Shown here: piece after piece, positions 23,998-59,513 of the stretch
Layout: the number at the start of each line of letters is the position of its first letter
Position numbering within the stretch: position 1 is the stretch's first letter
Source of the DNA: Gudongella oleilytica
Lineage (GTDB): Bacteria > Bacillota > Clostridia > Tissierellales > Tissierellaceae
DNA length: 64,000 nucleotides
Direction: 5' to 3'
Assembly (NCBI RefSeq): GCF_004101785.1
Contig: NZ_CP035130.1
Location: forward strand, 930,001 to 994,000
Program-made: the position numbers and the translations under genes
Notes under the pieces: model-generated
What the model was told of the DNA's origin: nothing
Database searches by the model: none
Seen by the model: the letters and a program-made list of their open reading frames with translations, nothing else

Positions 23998-24085
23998 GTA
24001 TAAACAAAAACAAAAACACCCCGTACATCTTTAAACATGTGATGTTTCGGGGTGTTATTTTTTCAGGAAATCTCCGGTAGCATTT
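23998..24085 (+). repeat. 88-bp target site duplication, left copy
   Basis: Identical over all 88 bases to 26116-26203 and directly abutting the left end of the insertion sequence. It carries a copy of the terminator and of the last codons of the ImmA gene, which shows that the element entered at the 3' end of immA. Confidence 0.95.
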
Positions 24086-24187
24086 CCTGACTTTGGAAGG
24101 AAAACAAATAAAAATAAATAGCATAACTTCTAAAACCTTGAATTCTCAAACGAATTCAGGGTTTTATTTTGGAAAAACATGGTTTAA

Positions 24188-24219
24188 CTATGTACACTTA
24201 TAATCACTTATGATATAAT
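24188..24219 (+). promoter_or_regulatory. Transposase promoter
   Basis: Extended -10 TGATATAAT at 24211-24219 with a weak -35 (TGTACA, 24191-24196) 17 bases upstream, about 28 bases before the transposase ATG. Confidence 0.55.
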
Positions 24220-24247
24220 ATAAGTAAATAGGTGTTGGAGGTGCCAG

Positions 24248-26035
24248 ATGTATATCACAATCAGCGGAAAAGGAAGTCATCGCATTGTCCAGTTGCGTGA
24301 TGATCGACGAGTTCCAGGCACAGATAAAAGAAAAGCGGTCATCGTAAAAAATTATGGTAACTATGAAAAGTTGCTGGCAGAAAACCCTCATATCATTGAG
24401 GAACTGAAAGAAGAAGCAAAGCGCTTAACACGGGAAAAGAATGCTGAGTCTGCTCCAATTACCTTAACTGTGCCCACAAAAGAGATTACCTCCGCCGAAG
24501 ACGTGACGTCTTCGTTCCGTTTCGGACACGCCCTGATTCAGAACCTCTGGAGAGAACTGAAATTGGAGAAGTTCTTTGAACGATATGCTGGAAAAAGAGA
24601 TCCTGAAGAGCTAATACAAAGCATCTTCTACCTCTTGGCTAGGAGATGTACGGATCCCGGCAGTATTTACAGCTGTTATCAAGTACAGAGCCAATATGCT
24701 GGTCATACGGAACAGACTTTGGATGCACTCTATGGAGTTTTGGATATCCTAGCAGAGTCTAAAGAGGATCTCATTGAATTCCTATCTGTTTTCTTCCAGA
24801 AGAAAACGAAACGAAAGAATGGTTGCGCCTATTACGATGTCACCACTCATTCCTTTGAGAGCACCAAATGGGGTGAACTGAGAATGTTTGGTTTCTCAAA
24901 ATCCCACAAAAACAATGAAGTTCAAGTAGTTATGGGACTTCTAATTGATAACAATGGGATTCCTGTAACCTATGAACTTTTTCCTGGAAACACTATGGAT
25001 CAGTCAACTTTAACGAAGTCAGTGGAAAGACTGAGAGAGTTATATCGTTTAGAGAAGATCACAGTAGTCGCAGATAGAGGACTTAATAGTGGTACAAACC
25101 TAGGCTACCTATGCTCACAGGATCATAACTTTGTAATCAGCTATACGCTGAAACGATCCACGCAAGAGTTTAAAAAACTGGCCTTGAATCCAGAGGGATG
25201 GAAAGTGACTTCGGTAAACAAAGAGAGCGGCGAGGTTCTGACCATGGAGAAAGTGGTGGAACAAACATTGGAATACAAGACAGAAGGTCTAGCGCTGGAC
25301 GCACCGGAGGGTGCGGAAGAAGGCATAAAGAAGAAGCGTGGACGACCTAAAAAGTATCAACACCATACTGTTCCGGTGAAGATCCATCTGACATGGAGCG
25401 CTAAAAGAGCGTCGAAAGACCGCGGTGATCGGCAACGAATGCTTGAAAAACTGATGAAAAAAATGGATAAGCCTTATCAGATGAAAGCAGCGGTGAAAAG
25501 AGGGGTAAACCAGTTCTTGGAGATGGAACTGGAGACAGAAAACTGGAAAATCAGCGAAGAGAAAATTAGGGAATCTGAAAAATATGATGGATATTACGCT
25601 ATCATCACGAACAATCTAGAGTTATCAACCCTTGAAGTAGTTGAAATCTATCGTGGTTTGTGGAGAATCGAAGAGAGTTTTAGGATCATGAAGACAGATT
25701 TACAGGCGACCCCTGCTTTTGTTTGGACCGATAAACACATCGAAGGACACTTTGCATTGTGCTTTTTAGCCTTAACTATTATGAGATATCTACAGTATAA
25801 GATTGCAGATCACACTGGAGCGCAGGTATCCGCTGCAAATCTCATGGAAGCTTTGTCAGGACCTACCGTTATTACGCAGGGAACTTATCCCAGTATTACC
25901 GTAACCCCGATCAATATAAACCAGACATACCTGGACATCAGTAAGATTCTTGGCATGGCCGCACTCAGACAGAATATGACTTTGACTCAGTTTCGGAGTG
26001 CAACAAAATTGAATTTAGTGAAGAATCTAGAATAA
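24248..26035 (+). CDS. IS1634 family transposase, copy 1
   Basis: 595-residue DDE transposase of the IS4-like superfamily. The first acidic residue is probably in YYDVTTHSFES, the second in VVADRGLNSGTN, and the third in the Y(2)R(3)E(6)K-like block YRGLWRIEESFRIMKTDL. A Lys-Arg-rich insertion (KKKRGRPKKY) lies in the middle. The protein differs from copy 2 at one position seen (EFKKLALN here, EFKELALN there). Intact, so probably active. The GGAG ribosome site precedes ATG 24248. Confidence 0.95.
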   Translation: MYITISGKGSHRIVQLRDDRRVPGTDKRKAVIVKNYGNYEKLLAENPHIIEELKEEAKRLTREKNAESAPITLTVPTKEITSAEDVTSSFRFGHALIQNLWRELKLEKFFERYAGKRDPEELIQSIFYLLARRCTDPGSIYSCYQVQSQYAGHTEQTLDALYGVLDILAESKEDLIEFLSVFFQKKTKRKNGCAYYDVTTHSFESTKWGELRMFGFSKSHKNNEVQVVMGLLIDNNGIPVTYELFPGNTMDQSTLTKSVERLRELYRLEKITVVADRGLNSGTNLGYLCSQDHNFVISYTLKRSTQEFKKLALNPEGWKVTSVNKESGEVLTMEKVVEQTLEYKTEGLALDAPEGAEEGIKKKRGRPKKYQHHTVPVKIHLTWSAKRASKDRGDRQRMLEKLMKKMDKPYQMKAAVKRGVNQFLEMELETENWKISEEKIRESEKYDGYYAIITNNLELSTLEVVEIYRGLWRIEESFRIMKTDLQATPAFVWTDKHIEGHFALCFLALTIMRYLQYKIADHTGAQVSAANLMEALSGPTVITQGTYPSITVTPININQTYLDISKILGMAALRQNMTLTQFRSATKLNLVKNLE

Positions 26036-26115
26036 GTGTACAAAAAAACCGTTGGAAACGAGGTGTAAACCAGGTGTTTCCAACGGTTTTATTAATATTA
26101 AGTTCTAAAGTCAGG

Positions 26116-26203
26116 GTATAAACAAAAACAAAAACACCCCGTACATCTTTAAACATGTGATGTTTCGGGGTGTTATTTTTTCAGGAAATCTCCGGTAGCA
26201 TTT
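26116..26203 (+). repeat. 88-bp target site duplication, right copy
   Basis: Identical to 23998-24085. Contains the true 3' end of immA (stop codon on the minus strand at 26173-26175), which is therefore preserved despite the insertion. Confidence 0.95.
26133..26181. terminator. Bidirectional terminator after immA
   Basis: AACACCCCG (26133-26141) pairs with CGGGGTGTT (26166-26174), with T-runs on both strands. The same structure exists at 24015-24063 as part of the duplicated target. Confidence 0.8.
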
Positions 26204-43868: not shown

Positions 43869-44070
43869 GTGCCATGATACCAGCAGTAACAAGTACCCAA
43901 TTTACCATCTATAGTTTTTAAAAAAGCGGAATTCTTACAGAGAGCCGAGATGTGTTGGTATCTCATAGTTGTTTCGATGATAAGTTGGGATGACTGTAAG
44001 TTATTTTTTGGAGACACTTACCATCTTTTTTGGTGTATTTTACTGAGCAATTTATCTATTCCATACCATC

Positions 44071-44299
44071 AACACACGTTGAGACGGTCGTATTGATGTC
44101 AAGGATTGAGAAGTGAGTATGTGGAAAGGGCTTGAAATAAGGGCTTTCCGGAGTTTGAACGGTAAAATTGGATAAGCAATAATCGTGAAAATATCTTTTC
44201 ATGGAAACAAGTCAAAAGGCATGATTTTGAACGTGACAGAGCGATTTAGATAACATGGGTTTGTGTGTGGTCGATTTAGATGTTTTGTAAAAAACGGAG
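44071..44299 (+). repeat. Dispersed repeat of about 230 bp, copy 1
   Basis: Starts at AACACACGTTGAG and matches 59284-59513 in the same orientation with roughly 80 percent identity; the stretch TGATTTTGAACGTGACAGAG is identical. No reading frame is shared. The surrounding gap 43869-44378 shows nothing else. Confidence 0.85.
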
Positions 44300-55596: not shown

Positions 55597-56252
55597 AAAA
55601 ATGAAAATCTAACGTAATGAAAACCAATTTATCAAGATAAATTGCAATAACAAATTGAACTAATTTTCATGCCTAACAGATCTTGTACTGTATTATGATT
55701 GATTTGTCACGGGAAGGGTGGAGATTTTCATCGAAAATACTACCCGACCTTGACAACTTTTAGCATAGTATACTCTAAGTTGGCCTTTCGGCACTCGATG
55801 CCGTAAAGGCCTACATGAAAACTCGATGGCTTCTGCTATGATGCATAGATTGCATCCAGTTCGTCCTCAAAGAGCTCCTCTGGTGTATTGTATCCAAGGA
55901 TCTTTCTGGGTAATGAGTTCATCCATTCCTCTATGAAGGAAATGTCTTCATCAGCATAGTCATTTATGCTTTTCCCTTTTGGGATGAAGCGACGTATCAG
56001 CCCATTGTGCCTTTCGTTTGTCCCTCTCTCAAATGATGAATAAGGATGGGTGAAGTAGACTTTTGTAGATGTTTTAGACTCCAGTTCATGTAGCTCTGAG
56101 AACTCCGACCCATTATCGGAGGTTATGGTCTTAAACACCTTGCTGAACCTGTCACCGAAAAATGATCGTATCTTCTGGAACTCATTGGATACTGCATCAG
56201 CTGTTTTTGATGGGATCCTTCTTATGATGGCGTTTCGGGTCTGTCTTTCAAC

Positions 56253-56474
56253 TATGGTCAGCAAGACTTCTTCGCCCCTGGACTTTTTACCTATTACAGT
56301 GTCTATCTCCCAGTGCCCGAATTCATTGCGCTGATCAACTGACTTTGGTCGTAGTTCTATACTGTTGCCAAGCTTCCTCTTATTCTTGCGAGTACGTTTT
56401 GATTTTGTGTTGTATTGAAGCTTAAGGGGTAAGTCAGAGTTCTTTACTCTCATAAGTCCAAGGTCAATGTAATT
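56253..56474 (+). repeat. 222-bp target site duplication, left copy
   Basis: Identical in all bases compared to 58505-58726 and abutting the IS end. It is part of the IS30 transposase gene. Confidence 0.95.
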
Positions 56475-58504
56475 CCTGACTTTAGAACTTAATATTAATA
56501 AAACCGTTGGAAACACCTGGTTTACACCTCGTTTCCAACGGTTTTTTTGTACACTTATTCTAGATTCTTCACTAAATTCAATTTTGTTGCACTCCGAAAC
56601 TGAGTCAAAGTCATATTCTGTCTGAGTGCGGCCATGCCAAGAATCTTACTGATGTCCAGGTATGTCTGGTTTATATTGATCGGGGTTACGGTAATACTGG
56701 GATAAGTTCCCTGCGTAATAACGGTAGGTCCTGACAAAGCTTCCATGAGATTTGCAGCGGATACCTGCGCTCCAGTGTGATCTGCAATCTTATACTGTAG
56801 ATATCTCATAATAGTTAAGGCTAAAAAGCACAATGCAAAGTGTCCTTCGATGTGTTTATCGGTCCAAACAAAAGCAGGGGTCGCCTGTAAATCTGTCTTC
56901 ATGATCCTAAAACTCTCTTCGATTCTCCACAAACCACGATAGATTTCAACTACTTCAAGGGTTGATAACTCTAGATTGTTCGTGATGATAGCGTAATATC
57001 CATCATATTTTTCAGATTCCCTAATTTTCTCTTCGCTGATTTTCCAGTTTTCTGTCTCCAGTTCCATCTCCAAGAACTGGTTTACCCCTCTTTTCACCGC
57101 TGCTTTCATCTGATAAGGCTTATCCATTTTTTTCATCAGTTTTTCAAGCATTCGTTGCCGATCACCGCGGTCTTTCGACGCTCTTTTAGCGCTCCATGTC
57201 AGATGGATCTTCACCGGAACAGTATGGTGTTGATACTTTTTAGGTCGTCCACGCTTCTTCTTTATGCCTTCTTCCGCACCCTCCGGTGCGTCCAGCGCTA
57301 GACCTTCTGTCTTGTATTCCAATGTTTGTTCCACCACTTTCTCCATGGTCAGAACCTCGCCGCTCTCTTTGTTTACCGAAGTTACTTTCCATCCTTCTGG
57401 ATTCAAGGCCAGTTCTTTAAACTCTTGCGTGGATCGTTTCAGCGTATAGCTGATTACAAAGTTATGATCCTGTGAGCATAGGTAGCCTAGGTTTGTACCA
57501 CTATTAAGTCCTCTATCTGCGACTACTGTGATCTTCTCTAAACGATATAACTCTCTCAGTCTTTCCACTGACTTCGTTAAAGTTGACTGATCCATAGTGT
57601 TTCCAGGAAAAAGTTCATAGGTTACAGGAATCCCATTGTTATCAATTAGAAGTCCCATAACTACTTGAACTTCATTGTTTTTGTGGGATTTTGAGAAACC
57701 AAACATTCTCAGTTCACCCCATTTGGTGCTCTCAAAGGAATGAGTGGTGACATCGTAATAGGCGCAACCATTCTTTCGTTTCGTTTTCTTCTGGAAGAAA
57801 ACAGATAGGAATTCAATGAGATCCTCTTTAGACTCTGCTAGGATATCCAAAACTCCATAGAGTGCATCCAAAGTCTGTTCCGTATGACCAGCATATTGGC
57901 TCTGTACTTGATAACAGCTGTAAATACTGCCGGGATCCGTACATCTCCTAGCCAAGAGGTAGAAGATGCTTTGTATTAGCTCTTCAGGATCTCTTTTTCC
58001 AGCATATCGTTCAAAGAACTTCTCCAATTTCAGTTCTCTCCAGAGGTTCTGAATCAGGGCGTGTCCGAAACGGAACGAAGACGTCACGTCTTCGGCGGAG
58101 GTAATCTCTTTTGTGGGCACAGTTAAGGTAATTGGAGCAGACTCAGCATTCTTTTCCCGTGTTAAGCGCTTTGCTTCTTCTTTCAGTTCCTCAATGATAT
58201 GAGGGTTTTCTGCCAGCAACTTTTCATAGTTACCATAATTTTTTACGATGACCGCTTTTCTTTTATCTGTGCCTGGAACTCGTCGATCATCACGCAACTG
58301 GACAATGCGATGACTTCCTTTTCCGCTGATTGTGATATACATCTGGCACCTCCAACACCTATTTACTTATATTATATCATAAGTGATTATAAGTGTACAT
58401 AGATAAACAATGTTTTTCCAAAATAAAACCCTGAATTCGTTTGAGAATTCAAGGTTTTAGAAGTTATGCTATTTATTTTTATTTGTTTTCCTTCCAAAGT
58501 CAGG
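56475..58504 (-). mobile_element. IS1634-like insertion sequence, copy 2 (2030 bp)
   Basis: Same length and ends (CCTGACTTT ... AAAGTCAGG) as copy 1 at 24086-26115 but in the opposite orientation. Only a few base differences are seen, for example two near the transposase promoter. It has a 222-bp target duplication instead of 88 bp. Confidence 0.96.
56555..58342 (-). CDS. IS1634 family transposase, copy 2
   Basis: 595 residues, the same as the transposase at 24248-26035 apart from one residue seen (EFKELALN here). DDE elements as in copy 1. Its upstream hairpin (about 58425-58458) and downstream 15-bp terminator (about 56500-56545) are kept. Intact and probably functional. Confidence 0.95.
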   Translation of the reverse strand: MYITISGKGSHRIVQLRDDRRVPGTDKRKAVIVKNYGNYEKLLAENPHIIEELKEEAKRLTREKNAESAPITLTVPTKEITSAEDVTSSFRFGHALIQNLWRELKLEKFFERYAGKRDPEELIQSIFYLLARRCTDPGSIYSCYQVQSQYAGHTEQTLDALYGVLDILAESKEDLIEFLSVFFQKKTKRKNGCAYYDVTTHSFESTKWGELRMFGFSKSHKNNEVQVVMGLLIDNNGIPVTYELFPGNTMDQSTLTKSVERLRELYRLEKITVVADRGLNSGTNLGYLCSQDHNFVISYTLKRSTQEFKELALNPEGWKVTSVNKESGEVLTMEKVVEQTLEYKTEGLALDAPEGAEEGIKKKRGRPKKYQHHTVPVKIHLTWSAKRASKDRGDRQRMLEKLMKKMDKPYQMKAAVKRGVNQFLEMELETENWKISEEKIRESEKYDGYYAIITNNLELSTLEVVEIYRGLWRIEESFRIMKTDLQATPAFVWTDKHIEGHFALCFLALTIMRYLQYKIADHTGAQVSAANLMEALSGPTVITQGTYPSITVTPININQTYLDISKILGMAALRQNMTLTQFRSATKLNLVKNLE

Positions 58505-58726
58505 TATGGTCAGCAAGACTTCTTCGCCCCTGGACTTTTTACCTATTACAGTGTCTATCTCCCAGTGCCCGAATTCATTGCGCTGATCAACTGACTTTGG
58601 TCGTAGTTCTATACTGTTGCCAAGCTTCCTCTTATTCTTGCGAGTACGTTTTGATTTTGTGTTGTATTGAAGCTTAAGGGGTAAGTCAGAGTTCTTTACT
58701 CTCATAAGTCCAAGGTCAATGTAATT
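58505..58726 (+). repeat. 222-bp target site duplication, right copy
   Basis: Second copy of 56253-56474, continuing without break into the N-terminal part of the IS30 transposase gene. Confidence 0.95.
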
Positions 58727-59283
58727 GTACAAAGTCTTGGTGCATACCATTTCAGAAGGCTTGAACTTTCCGGATTTAAGCGCACGACCAACGCATGTGT
58801 CGGGTGACCACTTATCTTCTTTGATCATTTTGGTGACATAATCTATGAAGTCACTGCATTGTAGCCTTTTAAAGGGCTTACAGGAGTTCTTACGGTTGTT
58901 GTCATAGACTGCTTTGCCTGTGGCAGCCAGGTATACATCAACTTTCTTTTTGGCATATATTTGTGTTGTTGTACCCCTTCTGATTTCATTTAGAATGGTA
59001 TTCCTTGCCCTGCCAAGCTGCTTTGCTATCTTGTAGGGGGTAAAGCCATCTTGAAGACGAAGTTGAATAAACATTCGCTCCTCGTAGTTTAGGTGTTTAT
59101 TTTTCCTCGAATCAGTGGTATTATTAGGGTAGTCCATAGTGATTATCCTCCGTGTCAGATTTTTTGTAGTGATTAAATCATAACACAGATAGTCATCTAT
59201 GGGCTTTTTATATTAGTTCAATTTCATTTTACAATGAGTCACCAATTTATCAAATTTATCTTTTTGATCTTTTTCACGCACCC

Positions 59284-59513
59284 AACACACGTTGAGCCGG
59301 TCGTATTGATGTCAAGGGTTGAGAAGTAAAAGTGTAGAAAAGCCTTGAAATAAAGGGTTTCCGAGGTTTGAACGTAAAAATCGGATGAGCAAAAATCGTG
59401 AAAACATCGGGTTTTGGGAACAAGTCCAAAGACGTGATTTTGAACGTGACAGAGCGATTTAGATAACATGGGTTTGCAGTGATCGAGTTAGATGTTTTTT
59501 GAAAAATCCGAGG
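59284..59513 (+). repeat. Dispersed repeat of about 230 bp, copy 2
   Basis: Pairs with 44071-44299 (same orientation, about 80 percent identity, several small gaps). It lies in the 512-bp gap between the IS30 gene and the DUF2202 gene, 60 bp outside the IS30 end. Confidence 0.85.

What the first reader, a model, noticed from the sequence alone, without database searches (positions are those of the whole stretch)
56253..58726. Second copy of the IS with a 222-bp duplication inside an IS30 gene
The same element in opposite orientation is flanked by 222 identical bases. Removing the IS and one copy restores an unbroken 349-codon IS30 transposase, which proves the event and shows that it is recent. 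The two copies differ by very few bases, so one enzyme produced both 88 and 222 bp duplications, which implies strand cuts at widely variable distance.
Basis: seen in the sequence. Interest (0 to 1): 0.75.

Follow-up and report, generated by a model that had tools for sequence, protein, structure and literature searches.

The report
Jumping gene with unusually long target duplications
A bacterial jumping gene of the IS1634 family has recently landed inside another jumping gene and copied 222 bases of it instead of the usual handful. This odd habit was already known for two relatives; here it is shown to belong to a whole branch of the family, apparently because the element's two ends pick their landing points separately.

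Summary
A 2,030-bp IS (56475-58504, minus strand) is flanked by two identical 222-bp copies of an IS30 transposase gene; removing the IS and one copy restores 349 codons, and a same-genus IS30 homolog is colinear across the join. The copy at 24086-26115 (88-bp duplication) differs at 5 of 2,030 bases; a third copy elsewhere in the genome has a 65-bp duplication. The transposase is an IS1634-family DDE enzyme with a Tn5-like fold. Long variable duplications (8-514 bp) were already reported for IS1549 and IS1634, so the phenomenon is not new.

A survey of relatives gave 87 duplications of 17-582 bp (median 103), all in one well-supported clade; 6-bp makers lie outside. In the window's subgroup both junctions independently prefer A as first duplicated base (21/22 and 19/22), which supports two separate strand transfers. 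Unexpectedly, in a sister clade (two insertions in this same genome) one end inserts at the edge of the -10 box of sigma-A promoters, with the -35 box 17 bp beyond, while the other end lands tens to hundreds of bp upstream. That held in 16 new sites. The strand-transfer mechanism is inferred, not shown.

The parts
56475..58504 (-). IS1634-family insertion sequence, 2,030 bp
   Evidence: 5 differences from copy 24086-26115; exact ends set by the flanking duplication
56555..58342 (-). IS1634-family DDE transposase gene, 595 aa; catalytic residues D197, D276, E475
   Evidence: NF033559, 342.5 bits, cut-off 100; PF01609; invariant columns; Tn5-like fold
58491..58504 (-). left terminal inverted repeat (upstream of the transposase) CCTGACTTTGGAAG
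56475..56488 (+). right terminal inverted repeat (downstream of the transposase) CCTGACTTTAGAAC
56253..56474 (.). 222-bp target duplication, copy 1
   Evidence: identical to copy 2
58505..58726 (.). 222-bp target duplication, copy 2
55836..56474 (-). 3' part of the interrupted IS30-family transposase gene
   Evidence: NF033563
58505..59137 (-). 5' part of the interrupted IS30-family transposase gene
   Evidence: NF033563
24086..26115 (+). sister copy of the same IS
23998..24085 (.). 88-bp target duplication of the sister copy, copy 1
26116..26203 (.). 88-bp target duplication of the sister copy, copy 2

Best explanation
This is an active IS1634-family insertion sequence of a clade whose Tn5-like DDE transposase duplicates tens to hundreds of target bases. 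Shown: exact ends, exact duplications of 65, 88 and 222 bp for one element, restoration of the IS30 frame, the clade-wide habit, and matching base preferences at both junctions. Inferred: the two transposon 3' ends do not attack the target as one rigid pair a few bases apart. Each end makes its own strand transfer, on opposite strands, at its own preferred site. The variable stretch between the nicks (here 222 bp) is then copied by repair or strand-displacement synthesis, giving the long direct repeat. In the window's subgroup each end needs little more than an A as first base inside the duplication. In a sister clade one end is docked on the -10 element of a promoter and the other lands upstream of it.
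For: Exact duplications of 222, 88 and 65 bp for three copies in one genome and 69 bp for a 97%-identical relative. 87 curated duplications of 17-582 bp, 80 without a single mismatch; spread is as wide within one element as between elements (Kruskal p 0.39). All long ones fall in one clade with support 100/99, 6-bp makers outside. First duplicated base is A at 21/22 right-end and 19/22 left-end junctions of the window type against 30% background. No significant helical phasing (p 0.09). Sister clade: right-end site ATTATA at least 5/6 in 28 of 36, left-end site 0 of 36, background 2.5%; -10/-35 score peaks at exactly that junction, z 9.4; replicated in 16 new sites (10 with -10 at least 5/6; 5 with a perfect TGTCAA at spacer 17). 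Two ends with different site rules at variable distance are hard to explain by one rigid target cut.
Against: No biochemistry. The window's own element shows only a one-base preference, so the two-site argument for it is weaker than for the promoter clade. The predicted Tn5-like fold comes from a family that normally makes fixed short staggers. About one in six elements with located ends shows no intact duplication, not explained here.
Confidence: 0.72

Rival explanations
1. Replication-coupled insertion: the transposase, held by the sliding clamp, joins its two ends to the two sister arms or to the two sides of a single-stranded gap at a fork, and the distance between the points becomes the duplication.
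For: An Acidiphilium IS1634-family transposase binds the beta clamp, and stronger binding raises transposition (PMC4549789).
Against: That element makes 6-bp repeats. No orientation bias relative to the fork for window-type (4 co-directional, 9 head-on, p 0.27) or TCAG-type elements (7 and 5). The bias in the promoter clade (13 and 36) is what co-oriented promoters would give. No plain clamp motif seen in the window transposase by a simple pattern.
Confidence: 0.13
2. The 222 bp was already tandemly duplicated and the IS landed exactly at the junction, or the duplication arose by later homologous recombination.
For: Tandem duplications exist in bacteria (general knowledge).
Against: It would have to happen exactly at the junction in 87 insertions. 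Both junctions carry base preferences. The homologous IS30 is single-copy and colinear.
Confidence: 0.02
3. The insertion made an ordinary 5-6 bp stagger, and the duplication was lengthened afterwards by resection and template switching during gap repair.
For: Other IS1634-family elements make 5-6 bp duplications (L147-L150).
Against: Repair would extend from random points, yet the far junction has its own +1 A preference in the window type. The trait follows the transposase phylogeny, and long and 6-bp makers coexist in the same genome G837.
Confidence: 0.1
4. Assembly artefact caused by the repeated IS.
For: Three near-identical IS copies in one genome.
Against: Three different unique duplications at three sites, and the same habit in many unrelated genomes.
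Confidence: 0.01

Closest known systems
IS1634 of Mycoplasma mycoides and IS1549 of Mycobacterium smegmatis (IS1634 family)
   Same: Same family; long, variable direct repeats, reported as 8-514 bp depending on the copy (PMC2266710).
   Different: Different elements and hosts. Their sequences were not compared here. No mechanism had been proposed in 2008 according to that paper.
Typical IS1634-family elements (ISPfe2, ISGka5, Acidiphilium IS1634-1)
   Same: Same transposase family and type of ends.
   Different: Duplications of 6 bp.
IS4 family / Tn5 (IS50)
   Same: Predicted fold closest to Tn5 transposase (3ecp, E 9.9e-10); DDE chemistry.
   Different: Fixed duplications of about 7-13 bp. 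The window's transposase lacks the R of the YREK motif.
TnGBS / ISLre2 / ISKra4 promoter-targeting elements (Mutator superfamily)
   Same: Oriented insertion at sigma-A promoters, with the right end next to the promoter (PMC3942029), as in the sister clade found here.
   Different: Different transposase superfamily; they insert 15-17 bp upstream of the -35, not at the edge of the -10. The window's own element shows no promoter signal.

Membership tests
IS1634 family | IS1634-family transposase profile (NF033559) | tested here: met
   342.5 bits against a cut-off of 100
IS1634 family | DDE catalytic triad | tested here: met
   D197, D276, E475 invariant in 23 relatives
IS1634 family | YREK motif without its arginine | tested here: met
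   Y468-(2)-L471-(3)-E475-(6)-K482 in the window protein (definition)
IS1634 family | ends C-----YT | tested here: met
   CCTGACTT at both ends (definition)
IS1634 family | typical length 1.5-2.0 kb | tested here: met
   2,030 bp, marginally above the usual range
IS1634 family | usual direct repeat of 5-6 bp | tested here: not met
   65, 88 and 222 bp. The family description itself lists IS1549 and IS1634 as exceptions, so this is not an exclusion criterion and membership stands
Long-duplication IS1634 elements (IS1549, IS1634) | long direct repeats of variable length from one element | tested here: met
Long-duplication IS1634 elements (IS1549, IS1634) | common ancestry with IS1549 and IS1634 themselves | not tested
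   their sequences were not fetched
[quoted passage not shown]
   no -10/-35 signal at either junction of window-type elements; met only by the sister clade, at another position

The most novel reading that the evidence does not exclude
Long-duplication IS1634 transposases uncouple the two strand transfers: each transposon end chooses its own target site. In one clade, present in this same genome, the right end docks at the downstream edge of the -10 box of sigma-A promoters, within the region melted in the RNA polymerase open complex, while the left end lands upstream at a variable distance. The long duplication then leaves the target gene with an intact copy of its promoter.
Probability: 0.6. 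Interest if true: 0.82.

Novelty: new member of a known kind. Interest (0 to 1): 0.52.

Why it matters
Fixed target duplications are a signature of DDE transposases, because both ends attack one target at a set stagger. A clade in which one enzyme produces 17-582 bp breaks that rule, and the 2008 review of the family says no mechanism had been proposed. The site analysis turns the open question into a testable model (two separately chosen sites) and adds an unexpected link to promoters in a sister clade. If right, long duplications may also spare the target gene by copying its promoter.

Tried and rejected
Pre-existing duplication and assembly artefact: rejected. Helical phasing of duplication length: not significant. 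Promoter signal at the window element's own junctions: none. Replication-fork polarity for the window type: none detectable, n = 13. Clamp-binding motif: none found by a simple pattern in the window transposase. Intact identical IS30 copies elsewhere in the genome: none, so the same-genus homolog was used instead. Plasmid collection: only five distant matches. The primary IS1549 and IS1634 papers are not in the library. Profile search of solved structures by sequence: nothing, hence the fold search. An 858-bp repeat (L164, 3 mismatches) and a few loci with doubtful ends were left out of the curated set.

Full report
Observation. The coordinates are exact. A 2,030-bp element at 56475-58504 (minus strand) lies between 56253-56474 and 58505-58726, which are identical over all 222 bases. 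Its ends, CCTGACTTTGGAAG and CCTGACTTTAGAAC, are inverted repeats with 12 of 14 matches. The other window copy (24086-26115) differs at 5 of 2,030 positions and is flanked by 88 identical bases. Joining the flanks with one 222-bp copy gives an open IS30-family transposase frame of 349 codons from the ATG, whose two halves each match the IS30 model. A third copy of the element in the genome (G000:C1:2097411-2099440) has an exact 65-bp duplication. No second intact copy of this IS30 exists in the genome. A same-genus genome carries a homolog that aligns to the joined frame over 918 columns at 72.7% identity, with the 222-bp stretch present once.

Identity. The 595-aa protein is an IS1634-family transposase (NF033559, 342.5 bits, cut-off 100; PF01609). 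D197, D276 and E475 are invariant in 23 relatives, and the YREK arginine is missing, as is usual in this family. The AlphaFold2 model (mean pLDDT 83.7) is closest to Tn5 transposase (3ecp, E 9.9e-10).

What was known. The 2008 review of the IS4 family gives 5-6 bp direct repeats for IS1634-family elements but records that IS1549 and IS1634 make long variable repeats of 8-514 bp, with no mechanism proposed (PMC2266710). Measured members such as ISPfe2, ISGka5 and Acidiphilium IS1634-1 make 6 bp. The window finding is therefore a new case of a known phenomenon.

Survey. I collected IS1634-family elements from the genome and from other genomes. Ends and duplications were located by direct repeats anchored on terminal inverted repeats. 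The curated set has 87 long duplications of 17-582 bp, median 103; 80 have no mismatch. Lengths vary as much within one element as between elements, fit a log-normal distribution, and show no significant helical phasing. Two clusters of 6-bp makers were measured. In a maximum-likelihood tree all long-duplication elements fall in one clade (49 rows, support 100/99) and the 6-bp makers outside it. Many rows have unknown duplication length, and some outside branches are long, so the exact origin of the trait is uncertain.

Junctions. For window-type elements the first duplicated base is A at 21 of 22 right-end and 19 of 22 left-end junctions, with 30% A in the background. The two ends thus show the same one-base preference although they lie 17-582 bp apart.

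Promoter clade. In a sister clade (ends such as CGGGTCTTTGACAG), which includes two insertions in this same genome (duplications of 79 and 156 bp), the right-end junction reads flank|ATTATA: at least 5/6 in 28 of 36 insertions, never at the left end, background 2.5%. ATTATA is the reverse complement of the -10 box. The reverse complement of the -35 box (TGTCAA) is enriched at exactly 17 bp beyond (mean 3.61 of 6 matches against 1.77, s.d. 0.40), and the combined -10/-35 score peaks only at this junction (z 9.4). A second branch shows the same with the cut one base inside the motif (z 6.6). Likely genes start within 250 nt downstream of 14 of 29 right-end sites against 4 of 29 left-end sites. 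Sixteen sites found afterwards in other genomes, one in a Carnobacterium plasmid, agree: 10 with at least 5/6 of the -10 and 5 with a perfect -35 at spacer 17. Insertion direction relative to replication (36 head-on, 13 co-directional) is what targeting of co-oriented promoters would give, so it is not independent proof of replication coupling. Promoter targeting is known for TnGBS, ISLre2 and ISKra4 elements, 15-17 bp upstream of the -35 (PMC3942029). I found no report of it in the IS1634 family or at the -10 edge in the papers I could search, which does not exclude one elsewhere.

Mechanism. The simplest account is that the two ends make separate strand transfers on opposite strands, each by its own site preference, and that the stretch between is filled by copying. 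Steps shown: exact duplications, variable length for one enzyme, clade-wide inheritance of the trait, distinct site rules at the two ends in the promoter clade. Steps inferred: order of the two joinings, how the intervening duplex is opened and copied, and any role of RNA polymerase or the sliding clamp. Rivals are a replication-fork model, later lengthening of a short duplication, and a pre-existing duplication; the last is nearly excluded.

Noticed in passing
G000:C1:266086-267669 and 1278561-1280144 (L006, L007); L118, L129, L153, L270, L284, L288, L301: A sister clade of IS1634-family elements inserts its right end at the downstream edge of sigma-A -10 boxes, with the -35 at a 17-bp spacer inside the duplication; the left end lands upstream at variable distance.
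   Followed up: yes
L165, L177, L250-L253: In a small related branch the promoter-like motif seems to sit at the left end instead of the right end (score peak z 4.4 at left offset -1, only six insertions).
   Followed up: partly
G000:C1:611700-618919: Several intact and broken IS1634-family transposase genes are packed within about 7 kb of this genome.
   Followed up: no
L305, L306, L307: IS1634-family elements on plasmid-collection records of Carnobacterium, Mycoplasmopsis gallopavonis and Lactobacillus johnsonii also have long direct repeats nearby (175+144, 332 and 61 bp), so the habit probably extends to Bacilli and mycoplasmas.
   Followed up: partly
23998-24085: The 88-bp duplication of the other window copy contains a terminator-like hairpin (AACACCCC ... 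GGGGTGTT followed by T-rich sequence), now present on both sides of the IS.
   Followed up: no
44051-44263 and 59264-59476: Two 213-bp stretches 83% alike, the second next to the interrupted IS30; nature unknown.
   Followed up: no
L047, L172, L199, L246, L265: Some promoter-clade elements have the right end at a -10 box but no intact duplication; they could be recombinants, decayed duplications or insertions with a deletion.
   Followed up: no
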